From: Thermococcus litoralis DSM 5473
GTDB lineage: Archaea; Methanobacteriota_B; Thermococci; Thermococcales; Thermococcaceae
DNA: 64,000 nt
NCBI RefSeq assembly: GCF_000246985.2
Contig: NC_022084.1
Span: forward strand, 887,246 to 951,245
Direction of reading: 5' to 3'
Position numbers and translations under genes: made by a program. The notes beneath the pieces were generated by a model. It did not search any database, was not told where the DNA came from, and saw only the letters and a program-made list of their open reading frames with translations. Shown in pieces: positions 19,229-46,577 of this stretch (position 1 is the stretch's first letter; the number at the start of each line of letters is the position of its first letter).

Positions 19229-20641
19229 TTAAGGAGAAGGAGAGTTTAAAACTTTGAGAATTGCTTTTTCATCCAATATTACTGCATCTTCAGGAGCATT
19301 TTTGATCTTTTTGGCTGATATAAGATAATATGCCTCTCCTTTCCACCCCGTGAGCTTAACCTTCTTTTTCAGCTCTTCAACGAGTTTTTCTCCATTGATC
19401 GCTTTTTTCTTCCATTTACATTCTCCAAAAATGGCTTTTTTTCTATCTCTGCTGAGAGCGACTATGTCTATTTCATAAACCTTGCGCTTTCCTTCCTCTC
19501 TATAATAACCCCAGTGTCGCCCTACCTCCGTGAATTTAAATGGGAGCTTGTTTTCACGGTTTAGTATCCACAACAGCTCTCTGCATATAAAGTCAAACCT
19601 TCTTCCGACATACTCGGGTAGCATGGAGATTACTTCTTCTCCAAGGTCTTCGCGCATTGCTTCGTATTCGCTCAGCCTTGGATGAATAAAGCGGAACCAG
19701 AAATTAATCAGGGGATGATTTATATAGAGCACTCTTTCCTTTCCCAGAACTGCCCGGTCATATGAGAGAAGCTTAAAATACTCAATCAGCTCTTTCAGCT
19801 GTCTTGTCAGTGATGTCTCTTCTCTGTTCATATAACCCGCTATTTTGCTTATTGATGTGGCCCCATTTGCCACGGCCTCAAGAATATCATAATAAACCCC
19901 CGATCGTCTACCGAACTCCAGAGAAAGTATTTTTGGTATTTCATCCTCTAAAGGAGCGGATGGTGTGAAAAAGAGATTTTTAACTATCTCTCCTGCGCTT
20001 CTTCCTTCAAGGCCCTCATCTTCGATTGTAACATAGTATTTCGGGAAGCCTCCAAAGATAGAGTAAAGACTTATGAAATCATCAAGACTCTCTAGTTTGA
20101 GCTCTTTCGCCATTTCGTATGCGCCTTTGATTCCAAGTTCTTTCAAATGGATTTTCCGCTTTATTCTCCCATAAAGCGACTCTTTGGAGTCTTTAAAAAG
20201 CTTCTCAATGAGTCCTATGGTGGAACCAGTGAAAATAAACATAATGCCTCCTCTATTTTCGTTCATGTCTATCAGCCTTTGAAGAGTTGGAATCACTGAT
20301 GGATCGACTTTTTGGAATTCTTGAAACTCGTCAAACGCAACTACGCCGTTGAACCTCTCGAAGAGAACTTCAAAGAACTCATCCCACGTTGAGATGTGTT
20401 CATACCTTGTTATTATCCCTTTCTTTCTTAAGATTTCCTCGTACTCCCTCAGGAGGGATTCCGAGGTTTTTGTTCTGTTAACAAAAAGGTATAGATCATT
20501 TTCCTCTAAAAATTCGAGGAGAAGTCTCGTTTTTCCAACCCGTCTCATTCCATAAATCACAATGGTGTAGAGCTTTTTCTTTGAAAGCTCTCTAGCCTTT
20601 TGAAGCATCGCAATCTCATGCTCCCTGTTGATGAAGCGCAT
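19229..20641 (-). CDS. archaeal ATPase_2 / DUF234-type AAA ATPase
   Basis: About 470 residues. The N-terminal MRFINREHEIAMLQKARELS is the family opening; the Walker A is YGMRRVGKTRLLLEFL, Walker B region VVAFDEFQEFQKV, sensor FIFTGSTIGLIEKLF. A winged-helix part follows (NGATSISKIAGYMNREETSL) and the C-terminal DUF234 domain (KKAIFGECKWKKK) has a nuclease-like E-x-K pattern. Function unknown; the winged helix could bind DNA. ATG 20641 is selected by GGTGA 5 nt upstream. Its promoter carries a tandem palindrome (20645-20675), suggesting autoregulation. Confidence 0.85.
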   Translation of the reverse strand: MRFINREHEIAMLQKARELSKKKLYTIVIYGMRRVGKTRLLLEFLEENDLYLFVNRTKTSESLLREYEEILRKKGIITRYEHISTWDEFFEVLFERFNGVVAFDEFQEFQKVDPSVIPTLQRLIDMNENRGGIMFIFTGSTIGLIEKLFKDSKESLYGRIKRKIHLKELGIKGAYEMAKELKLESLDDFISLYSIFGGFPKYYVTIEDEGLEGRSAGEIVKNLFFTPSAPLEDEIPKILSLEFGRRSGVYYDILEAVANGATSISKIAGYMNREETSLTRQLKELIEYFKLLSYDRAVLGKERVLYINHPLINFWFRFIHPRLSEYEAMREDLGEEVISMLPEYVGRRFDFICRELLWILNRENKLPFKFTEVGRHWGYYREEGKRKVYEIDIVALSRDRKKAIFGECKWKKKAINGEKLVEELKKKVKLTGWKGEAYYLISAKKIKNAPEDAVILDEKAILKVLNSPSP

Positions 20642-20644
20642 TAT

Positions 20645-20675
20645 ATTCACCTACTGAATAATTCACTAACTGAAT
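20645..20675 (-). promoter_or_regulatory. tandem palindromic operator at ATPase promoter
   Basis: Two perfect 15-bp dyads of the form ATTCA-N5-TGAAT occupy 20645-20659 and 20661-20675, 16 bp apart. They lie between a minus-strand TATA element (TTTTTATATTC, about 20673-20683) and the ATPase start at 20641, where a repressor would block initiation. Direct reading of both half-sites; the binding protein is unknown. Confidence 0.7.
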
Positions 20676-21455: not shown

Positions 21456-21500
<45 letters not shown>

Positions 21501-41380: not shown

Positions 41381-41462
41381 AGAACTTTTTTCAAGCCTCG
41401 CCCTTCAGGGCGGGGAGGAGGTCAGGTGGTGAGATCTCCAGATTAAGGCGAGACTTTCAAGA
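41381..41462 (-). repeat. dispersed hairpin repeat, copy B, with inverted partial tail
   Basis: On the minus strand 41381-41425 reads CTGACCTCCTCCCCGCCC, loop, GGGCGAGGCTTGAAAAAAG, almost the reference unit. Directly next to it, 41443-41462 has an inverted tail-like piece (GGCGAGACTTTCAAGAAC), so the whole is an 80-bp element with inverted ends. It overlaps the stop of the SWIM gene. A weaker tail-like GGCGAAGGCTTTGCAAA lies at about 41296-41312. Confidence 0.6.
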
Positions 41463-42931: not shown

Positions 42932-42995
42932 ACTGACCTCCTCCCCCGCTTAGCTAAGGATTCCAACGGTTTAACCCCTCGCCATTGAGGGGAGG
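42932..42995 (+). repeat. dispersed hairpin repeat, copy C (longer form)
   Basis: Begins CTGACCTCCTCCCCCGC like the others, but the stem region is replaced by a 30-bp insert and a second hairpin CCCCTC-GCCATT-GAGGGG at 42975-42992. It lies 160 bp upstream of the ATPase at 43155. The remaining part of the 42867-43154 gap holds a remnant (43003-43090) and an operator (43119-43144). Confidence 0.55.
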
Positions 42996-43090: not shown

Positions 43091-43118
43091 AACCAAAAAG
43101 GTATTAAATTCCAATGCA

Positions 43119-43144
43119 TTACAGTTTTATGCATAAATCTGTAA
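43119..43144 (+). promoter_or_regulatory. 26-bp near-perfect palindrome over ATPase promoter
   Basis: The two halves pair at 12 of 13 positions (outer arms TTACAG and CTGTAA, centre ATGCAT). It ends 10 bp before ATG 43155, overlapping the expected TATA or initiation region. This is a strong operator candidate, read directly from sequence. Confidence 0.75.
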
Positions 43145-43154
43145 GGGTGATATC

Positions 43155-44648
43155 ATGTTTGTTGATAGAAGGGCGGAACTGAAGGTGTTGCACTCTGCCT
43201 ATGGGTCACTAAAGAGTGGGGAGAAGGTTAATGTTGCTATTATCGGGCCGAGGAGAATTGGAAAGACTGAACTTCTTCTTAAATTCAGAGAGAAAGCCAA
43301 GGGAGTTGTTCCATACTTAAACTTACAGCGGATTGGAAGCCTAGACTCATTTATCTTTGCATACACGAGGGAGCTTCTATATGAAATTGCTAATACACTG
43401 GGATTGGAGATTGGAAGGAGTGAGCTCTTAACCTGGGATGACCTGCTAATCCTGTCTGCAAAGCTTGAAGTTGATAGGGAAGTTAGAGCAATCAAGGATG
43501 GGTGCCTCGAAACTCTCTTTGAAATTCAGGAGTCAATTCTAGAGAAAACAGGACAAAAGGCCGTTTTTATTCTCGATGAATTCCAGGAAGTTCTCAATTT
43601 CAAGGGATTCTTGGAGGTAATGCGTGCTGTCACGGAAAAGCAGAAGAACATTGCATACTTCATTTCTGGCTCTGCCGTTAGAATGATGGAAGAAATTTTA
43701 GCTCCAAAGAATCCCTTCTTTGGTCAATTCAGGCGAATTTACCTGAAGGGTTTGCCAAGAGAGGATGCAATAGAGCTTGCAAAAACAACCCTAGAAAGGG
43801 CAGGAATTGAAGCTTCCCGATCAGCACTTGAACTGATTTATAAACTCACCCAGGGTCATCCCTTTTATGTTCTAGCTGTGTGCAGGCGTTTAATTGAAGA
43901 GGGCTTTGAAAAGATTAGACGGAAAGATGTTCACTATGCCTTTCTCACTGAACTATTGACAGAGAAAGGGGACATCTATATGCACCTTGAATATGTTTTC
44001 AATGAGTCCCTCTCAAGGGCCTACAAAGGACCAATCCACAAGCAGATTCTTCTTATCCTGGCTCAGGAAGAGGGGTTGAGGCTTTCGGAGATTGCCAGAC
44101 GTTTGGGCAAGCCCAGTGGCGAGGTGTCAAACTATTTGAAATTCCTTTTGAGGACGGATTTGATTGTAAGGCAGAATGAAAAGTATTACTTTGCCGACAA
44201 GCTCATGCGTTTCTGGCTTGCAAAGACCTATCTTGGCATCACCGAGCTGGAGCTCAGGCGGGAGAAGTATTTGGAAGAGCTGATTAAGGAGTTAGAGGAA
44301 AAGTACCTCAGGGTGAAGAGGGAGCTTGGACTTGCAAGAGAATCCGTGGTCAGGGAGAAGATGAGAGAGGTGTTCGGCATTGATTTCAAGCCTTATCGGA
44401 GGGGTGATGTTGAGTTTGATGGTGTTGCCTTTAGTGATAAGATTTATGTGCTTGAGGTCAAGTGGAGGAATAAACCGGCAACTTACAGGGACGTGGAAGA
44501 GTTCGTGAAGAAAGCAAAAGAAGAGTTTGGATCTGCAGTGATGTTCTTCTTCTCGAAGTCAGGCTTTACTGAAAAAGCAAAAGAACTGTGTAAGAAAGAA
44601 GGTGTTAAAATGCTAATACCCGTGGATCTGGAGTGTAGCGCGTTCTGA
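43155..44648 (+). CDS. archaeal ATPase_2 / DUF234-type AAA ATPase
   Basis: A 497-residue protein. MFVDRRAELKVLHSAYGSLK, Walker A IIGPRRIGKTELLLKF, Walker B AVFILDEFQEVLNF, sensor FISGSAVRMMEEILAP. A winged-helix segment (EEGLRLSEIARRLGKPSGEV) follows, then a C-terminal nuclease-like domain with DVEFDGVAFSDKIYVLEVKW. Function unknown; the wHTH could bind the promoter palindrome. GGTGA 5 nt before ATG 43155. First of three successive ATPases. Confidence 0.88.
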   Translation: MFVDRRAELKVLHSAYGSLKSGEKVNVAIIGPRRIGKTELLLKFREKAKGVVPYLNLQRIGSLDSFIFAYTRELLYEIANTLGLEIGRSELLTWDDLLILSAKLEVDREVRAIKDGCLETLFEIQESILEKTGQKAVFILDEFQEVLNFKGFLEVMRAVTEKQKNIAYFISGSAVRMMEEILAPKNPFFGQFRRIYLKGLPREDAIELAKTTLERAGIEASRSALELIYKLTQGHPFYVLAVCRRLIEEGFEKIRRKDVHYAFLTELLTEKGDIYMHLEYVFNESLSRAYKGPIHKQILLILAQEEGLRLSEIARRLGKPSGEVSNYLKFLLRTDLIVRQNEKYYFADKLMRFWLAKTYLGITELELRREKYLEELIKELEEKYLRVKRELGLARESVVREKMREVFGIDFKPYRRGDVEFDGVAFSDKIYVLEVKWRNKPATYRDVEEFVKKAKEEFGSAVMFFFSKSGFTEKAKELCKKEGVKMLIPVDLECSAF

Positions 44649-44902: not shown

Positions 44903-44963
44903 CCTATAGGTATAGAGTTCAACCGAAAAATATAAATATCCAGAAACAGGATAATCCTATAGG
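44903..44963 (+). promoter_or_regulatory. promoter with two CCTATAGG palindromes flanking BRE/TATA
   Basis: CCTATAGG occurs at 44903-44910 and 44956-44963, each preceded by GATAATC. Between them CCGAAAAATATAAATA (44923-44938) is a clear BRE/TATA. The second palindrome falls at the predicted transcription start, 11 bp before ATG 44974. Layout fits repression by a dimer at two sites. Confidence 0.7.
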
Positions 44964-44973
44964 CGGATAATAA

Positions 44974-46536: not shown

Positions 46537-46577
46537 TTAAAACAAGCCTCGTCCTTCAGGGCCGGGAGGAGGTCAGT
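46537..46577 (-). repeat. dispersed hairpin repeat, copy E
   Basis: On the minus strand: CTGACCTCCTCCCGGCCC, loop, GGACGAGGCTTGTTTTAAAG. It lies 135 bp before the ATPase start at 46711, in opposite orientation to copies C and D. Confidence 0.6.

What the first reader, a model, noticed from the sequence alone, without database searches (positions are those of the whole stretch)
43119..43144. 26-bp palindrome (12/13 pairs) on the 43155 ATPase promoter
TTACAG...ATGCAT...CTGTAA is symmetrical except for one T/T pair and ends 10 bp before the start codon. This is longer and more exact than expected by chance in 30 bp and is well placed for a repressor.
Basis: seen in the sequence. Interest (0 to 1): 0.65.

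Follow-up and report, generated by a model that had tools for sequence, protein, structure and literature searches.

The report
Self-addressed operator array of archaeal ATPase
The palindrome is real and is the centre of a longer array of 15-bp repeated palindromes that has travelled with this archaeal ATPase–DNA-binding–nuclease gene between distant archaea, and most of its sister genes carry their own, differently spelled version, which suggests that each of these candidate defence proteins switches its own gene off.

Summary
The dyad is exactly as described (12/13 pairs, 43119-43144) and is the best 26-bp palindrome in the 64 kb window. It is part of something larger. The invariant unit is a palindromic ATGCAT core repeated every 15 bp (43114, 43129), with a TATA-like box at one end and a degenerate copy over the Shine-Dalgarno at the other. 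All 18 Thermococcaceae orthologues with an intact 5' end carry it despite unrelated flanks. So do 10 orthologues (~40% identity) from other archaeal lineages. In the window's genome the array occurs only at this gene. The gene encodes ATPase_2 + winged HTH + PD-(D/E)XK-like nuclease. Most sister ATPase_2 genes carry their own tandem dyads, 15-16 bp apart, with a different core: 74/115 promoters above threshold versus 0/265 controls, and 7/7 in the window's genome. For one sister subfamily the array is intact in 23/23 promoters next to the ATPase, but in only 12/22 related promoters lacking it. Best reading: a self-operator bound by the ATPase's own winged HTH, blocking TATA-to-RBS. Sequence, conservation, specificity and linkage are shown; binding and repression are inferred. 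Co-variation with the recognition helix could not be separated from phylogeny.

The parts
43102..43109 (+). TATA-like box (TATTAAAT); in some orthologues this position is itself an iteron (L040 ATGCATAAA; L031, L032, L036 ATGTATTAAA)
   Evidence: Columns -26,-25,-23..-21 invariant in 17 orthologues; iteron-0 spelling; TATA role is inference
43114..43119 (.). Iteron 1 core ATGCAT
   Evidence: Near-invariant in 17 orthologues; 15 bp before iteron 2
43119..43144 (.). The reported 26-bp dyad, 12/13 pairs, centred on iteron 2
43129..43134 (.). Iteron 2 core ATGCAT (dyad centre), invariant in 17 aligned orthologues
43144..43151 (+). Degenerate iteron 3 position overlapping the Shine-Dalgarno AGGGTGAT (spelled ATGCAA in L041/L042)
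   Evidence: SD role is inference
43155..44648 (+). 497-aa ATPase_2 + winged HTH + PD-(D/E)XK-like protein, proposed to bind the array
   Evidence: Pfam ATPase_2 48.5 bits, HTH_24 27.1, Mrr_cat 22.1, all above cut-off
44028..44192 (+). Winged HTH (residues 292-346); recognition helix about 321-334, SGEVSNYLK
   Evidence: Pfam, AlphaFold secondary structure H292-304, H310-317, H321-334, E337-340, E343-346, conserved to 40% identity
44340..44615 (+). PD-(D/E)XK-like nuclease region (residues 396-487; E396, E420/D422, E434-x-K436)
   Evidence: Mrr_cat 22.1 bits against cut-off 21; conserved residues; alpha-beta pattern
44938..44968 (.). Sister array of the next gene (44974, ATPase_2 + DUF234): ATCC-N7-GGAT twice, 16 bp apart
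20645..20675 (-). Sister array of the ATPase_2 + DUF234 gene 19229-20641(-): ATTC-N7-GAAT twice, 16 bp apart

Best explanation
The dyad is the core of a dedicated operator array that the adjacent ATPase–wHTH–nuclease protein binds to control its own gene. Dimers of the winged HTH would sit on ATGCAT palindromes spaced 15 bp apart, covering DNA from the TATA-like box to the Shine-Dalgarno, excluding TBP/TFB/RNA polymerase and so repressing transcription until the ATPase is triggered. Shown: the array, its conservation, its uniqueness in the genome, its inheritance with the gene rather than with the host, and subfamily-specific tandem dyads at most sister genes. Inferred: binding by the gene's own product, repression, ATP or ligand control, and a defence role.
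For: (1) 18/18 Thermococcaceae orthologues with a 5' end keep the array; pairwise identity is 0.90 in the array against 0.28 in DNA 61-90 bp upstream of the ATG. (2) Ten orthologues at about 40% identity from other archaeal lineages carry 2-3 ATGCAT-type cores at the same 15-bp period. (3) WATGCATW-N7-WATGCAW occurs at one place in the 2.2 Mb own genome, this promoter; reversed-pattern control 0. In 9 distant genomes it is found in all, at the orthologue in at least 8 by the strict pattern, with extras in few. (4) The protein has an above-cut-off wHTH. (5) 98/115 sister promoters have best period 15 or 16 (shuffles expect 14); 74/115 score at least 28 at that period against 0/265 control promoters; 11/16 subfamilies; 7/7 ATPase_2 genes of the own genome. 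Different genes in one genome have different cores, so a single shared host factor is unlikely. (6) Sister ATTC array: intact in 23/23 promoters joined to the ATPase (genes chosen by protein only), 12/22 in nif3 promoters without it, Fisher p = 2e-4.
Against: No binding or expression data. Operator similarity follows recognition-helix similarity (r = 0.44 over 20 subfamilies) but not beyond overall ATPase-domain similarity (partial r = 0.05, p = 0.29), so wHTH specificity is not demonstrated. Several ATPase-less nif3 promoters keep intact sister arrays (12/22), which could mean another binder. Two copies with damaged coding sequence (G026, G117) still have intact ATGCAT arrays. The AlphaFold model is modest (pLDDT 77.9, pTM 0.44). 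The 22 and 23 promoters of the natural experiment are phylogenetically related. Five of 16 subfamilies do not meet the tandem-dyad criterion.
Confidence: 0.68

Rival explanations
1. The arrays are operators for one or more host transcription factors, not for the ATPases themselves.
For: The ATTC array persists intact at nif3 in 12 of 22 genomes without the adjacent ATPase; recognition-helix coupling is not separable from phylogeny.
Against: Cores differ between sister genes in one genome yet are shared by orthologues in different phyla. The array is unique to this gene in the genome, so there is no regulon. The ATTC array decays where the ATPase is absent.
Confidence: 0.13
2. The array is an iteron-type replication origin or recombination/attachment site of a mobile element whose initiator is the ATPase.
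For: 15-bp iterons upstream of an AAA-type + wHTH gene resemble Rep/iteron and Orc1/Cdc6-ORB organisation; Foldseek ranks Cdc6/Orc1 bound to origin DNA third (2qby, E 1.1e-9). Flanks differ between orthologues, so the gene moves.
Against: The array lies strictly on TATA-to-SD. No orthologue covering at least 80% of the query in 72,556 plasmids or 50,697 phages and none in viral contigs. Sister arrays use other sequences at the same promoter position and serve stably placed chromosomal genes.
Confidence: 0.07
3. The dyad acts as an RNA hairpin in the 5' UTR controlling translation or termination.
For: It adjoins the Shine-Dalgarno and folds at 37 C (-5.0 kcal/mol).
Against: Predicted unfolded at 85 C; the conserved repeat includes the TATA-like region, which need not be transcribed; conservation is of 15-bp direct periodicity, and L041/L042 keep ATGCAT cores while their spacers run as direct instead of inverted repeats; no Rfam match.
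Confidence: 0.03
4. Chance palindrome in AT-rich promoter DNA.
For: A+T-rich promoters make short palindromes common.
Against: 0/5000 shuffles, conservation in 28/28 orthologues, 0/265 control promoters.
Confidence: 0.01

Closest known systems
Autoregulation of type Ia plasmid partition operons by ParA (ATPase with winged HTH)
   Same: An ATPase with a wHTH binds several overlapping inverted repeats covering its own promoter (PMC8465637).
   Different: Unrelated ATPase fold family, no centromere or ParB partner, archaeal chromosome, extra nuclease-like domain; here binding is inferred only.
Archaeal Orc1/Cdc6 binding origin recognition boxes
   Same: AAA-type ATPase + winged HTH on repeated dyads near its gene; Foldseek rank 3, 2qby.
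   Different: The array is in the core promoter, sequence is private to each subfamily, no origin context shown, carries a PD-(D/E)XK-like domain.
PDC-S27 / PDC-S01 candidate defence ATPases (PADLOC; ATPase fused to PD-(D/E)XK)
   Same: Same domain plan; window gene gives weak PDC-S27 hits (31.7 bits), neighbour 44974 gives 145.5 bits. PMC12988326 lists them as archaea-rich and mostly unvalidated.
   Different: No operator or self-regulation is mentioned in the passages read; defence function untested for these genes.
PABY2304 (PDB 2qen) and SSO1545 (PDB 2fna) archaeal Walker-type ATPases
   Same: Closest solved folds.
   Different: Chains of only 350-357 residues, so too short to hold the C-terminal nuclease-like domain; no operator data found.

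Membership tests
ATPase_2 (PF01637) archaeal ATPases | Pfam model above gathering score with Walker A and B | tested here: met
   48.5 bits against 33.2; GxRRxGKT and ILDE conserved
PD-(D/E)XK nuclease fusion | Core fold with E/D...ExK residues | tested here: inconclusive
   Mrr_cat 22.1 bits against cut-off 21, E434-x-K436 conserved, predicted alpha-beta core; activity untested; one orthologue has R for K
PDC-S27 candidate defence system | Match to the PADLOC model over its length | tested here: inconclusive
   31.7 bits, profile 88-313 of 474 only
Autorepressor operator | Conserved dyad in orthologous promoters overlapping core promoter | tested here: met
Autorepressor operator | Binding by the gene's own product and repression | not testable with these tools
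   Needs EMSA/footprint and deletion; only indirect linkage evidence
Autorepressor operator | Operator core co-varies with recognition helix beyond phylogeny | tested here: not met
   Partial Mantel r = 0.05, p = 0.29
Orc1/Cdc6 initiator with ORB origin | Closest homology to Orc1/Cdc6 and origin context | tested here: inconclusive
   Top fold hits are PABY2304 and SSO1545, Orc1/Cdc6 third; no Orc-type Pfam hit; origin activity not tested

The most novel reading that the evidence does not exclude
The array is more than an autoregulatory operator. The ATPase–nuclease is parked on its own promoter as a sensor, and displacement from, or change of, this self-address (for example by a virus taking over transcription or DNA) both derepresses the gene and arms the nuclease. 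A whole archaeal family of candidate defence ATPases would then diversify by changing self-address and protein together.
Probability: 0.1. Interest if true: 0.85.

Novelty: new variant of a known kind. Interest (0 to 1): 0.62.

Why it matters
Archaeal ATPase_2/DUF234 genes are common, largely uncharacterised archaeal genes, and relatives are counted as candidate defence systems without experimental support. A private, readable DNA address in front of each of them gives a direct handle: what each protein binds, how it is kept silent, and which copies are still functional. It also gives many natural pairs of winged HTH and operator for decoding DNA specificity at high temperature.

Tried and rejected
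An iteron spacing of 16 bp was first used by miscount; the nulls there say nothing about the 15-bp array (0/94 genomes is a wrong-spacing control). RNA hairpin: unfolded at 85 C, no Rfam hit. Regulon idea: rejected, the array is at one place in the own genome. A second TTTTATGCATAAA (L060, upstream of a PurS-like gene) lacks the 15-bp partner and was set aside. Plasmid, phage and viral-contig searches gave no orthologue covering most of the query. Recognition-helix co-evolution beyond phylogeny: tested, not supported. Within-dyad compensating changes: only weak. A first count of ATTC arrays at ATPases was circular (genes picked by array) and was redone with genes picked by protein only. Literature searches for the motif and for self-regulation of this family found nothing specific.

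Full report
OBSERVATION. 43119-43144 reads TTACAGTTTTATGCATAAATCTGTAA, with 12 of 13 pairs, ending 10 bp before the ATG of 43155. It is the only 26-bp stretch in the window with 11 or more pairs, and none of 5000 dinucleotide shuffles of the promoter region reaches 12.

SETTING. The window is a piece of a 2.2 Mb Thermococcaceae-type chromosome (the family assignment rests on kinship to records titled Thermococcus). Gene 43155-44648 encodes ATPase_2 (48.5 bits), a winged HTH (HTH_24, 27.1 bits) and a weak but above-cut-off Mrr_cat match. An AlphaFold model from ten homologues (pLDDT 77.9, pTM 0.44) shows the wHTH helices and an alpha-beta C-terminal core. Its nearest solved folds are PABY2304 (2qen), SSO1545 (2fna) and then Cdc6/Orc1 on origin DNA (2qby).

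WHAT THE ELEMENT REALLY IS. Promoters of the 18 Thermococcaceae orthologues that retain a 5' end (about 65-96% identity) all carry the element, although DNA 61-90 bp upstream of the ATG is unrelated (pairwise identity 0.28) while the array is 0.90 identical. The invariant feature is a palindromic ATGCAT core repeated at exactly 15 bp (43114 and 43129; one orthologue has GTGCAT and one ATGTAT at the first core). A TATA-like box lies 15 bp further up and in some orthologues is itself spelled as an iteron (L040 ATGCATAAA, L036 ATGTATTAAA). A degenerate copy lies over the Shine-Dalgarno, where L041/L042 still spell ATGCAA. Distant orthologues (~40% identity; ANME/Methanosarcinales, Altiarchaeota, Hydrothermarchaeota) have two or three TATGCATA-type cores at the same period.

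SPECIFICITY. The pair WATGCATW-N7-WATGCAW is found at one place in the own genome, this promoter. In 94 family genomes it occurs in 22: 16 at the orthologue, one orphan fragment (G065) and five others. The reversed pattern gives none. In nine distant genomes searched the strict pattern occurs in all nine, at the orthologue's promoter in eight (L080 has a one-base variant there, ATGTAT), with a few extra places in two genomes. There is therefore no regulon; the site belongs to the gene.

GENERALISATION. Sister ATPase_2 genes carry tandem dyads at the same promoter position with other cores: ATCC-N7-GGAT twice (neighbour 44974), ATTC-N7-GAAT twice (window gene 20641(-)), ATACC-N5-GGTAT, ATTAC..GTAAT, TTTAC..GTAAA and more. 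Where the core differs between subfamilies, the half-sites differ together. With a fixed tandem-dyad score, 98/115 ATPase promoters have best period 15 or 16 (shuffles expect 14; controls 44/265), and 74/115 score at least 28 at that period against 0/265 control promoters. At the level of subfamilies it is 11 of 16. All seven ATPase_2 genes of the own genome above the Pfam cut-off have such arrays, each with a different core. Sites that differ between genes of one genome but are shared by orthologues in different phyla argue against one common host factor.

NATURAL EXPERIMENT. The ATTC array occurs about once per genome (42 of 94). Unexpectedly, in many genomes it lies in the elp3-nif3 intergenic region without an ATPase, while in others the ATPase gene sits between array and nif3. 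Taking ATPases by protein identity alone, 23/23 distinct genes have an intact array (counting the window gene). Of 22 ATPase-less nif3 promoters with the array, 12 are intact and 10 carry point changes, single-base insertions or deletions; Fisher p = 2e-4. Array upkeep thus depends on the linked ATPase, as expected of a self-operator. The sample is not corrected for shared ancestry, and the intact ATPase-less copies leave room for another binder. In the ATGCAT family, gene wrecks show damaged arrays (G018 lacks 2 bp in iteron 1; G013 lost iteron 2 with the start codon), but two copies with coding damage (G026, G117) keep theirs.

MECHANISM. Most likely the protein's winged HTH (recognition helix SGEVSNYLK, conserved in the 40% orthologues) binds the ATGCAT palindromes as side-by-side dimers and covers TATA to ribosome-binding site, repressing its own gene; ATP or a ligand may relieve it. 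Binding and repression are inference. A Mantel test shows operator similarity tracks recognition-helix similarity (r = 0.44) but not beyond ATPase-domain similarity (partial r = 0.05, p = 0.29), so the specific protein-DNA contact is not demonstrated. Within the 26-bp dyad, compensating changes are few.

COMPARISON. It works like type Ia ParA autoregulation, where an ATPase with a wHTH coats its promoter on overlapping repeats (PMC8465637), and is built somewhat like Orc1/Cdc6 with its boxes. It belongs to the ATPase_2 family; similar ATPase + PD-(D/E)XK genes are listed as unvalidated defence candidates PDC-S27/S01 (PMC12988326). No description of the arrays was found in the literature held here, which lacks most subscription journals.

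VERDICT. A real, conserved element, wider than reported, with a likely self-regulatory role and a family-wide pattern that is readily testable.

Noticed in passing
L287-L304 (e.g. L302:1765-1797), L204, L350: The ATTC tandem-dyad array of a sister ATPase also lies in the elp3-nif3 intergenic region of many Thermococcaceae; some genomes have the ATPase gene between array and nif3, others only the array in front of nif3.
   Followed up: partly
window 41415-41425, 42933-42943, 46566-46576, 21456-21466: GAGGAGGTCAG occurs exactly four times (six with one mismatch; about 1 expected with one mismatch), at 42933 beside an inverted repeat, close to the ATPase genes; it also appears upstream of other ATPase genes (L229, L236). 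Possibly relics of a small mobile element.
   Followed up: no
L046:1400-1763: In G018 an internally deleted remnant of the ATPase gene (promoter, start and C-terminal end) sits between purL-like and purQ-like genes.
   Followed up: partly
L225, L229, L235-L239, L245, L373-L375: Another ATPase_2 subfamily has a GATTATTATAATC-type palindrome running up to the start codon (ATGATT...), suggesting an operator over a leaderless start.
   Followed up: no
L254 (G000:C1:1462865): This ATPase_2 gene of the own genome has three tandem TTACAT..GTAA dyads, 16 bp apart, the third extending over the start codon.
   Followed up: partly
L060 (G000:C1:841024): An isolated TTTTATGCATAAA lies upstream of a PurS-like gene; without the 15-bp partner it is probably chance.
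   Followed up: no
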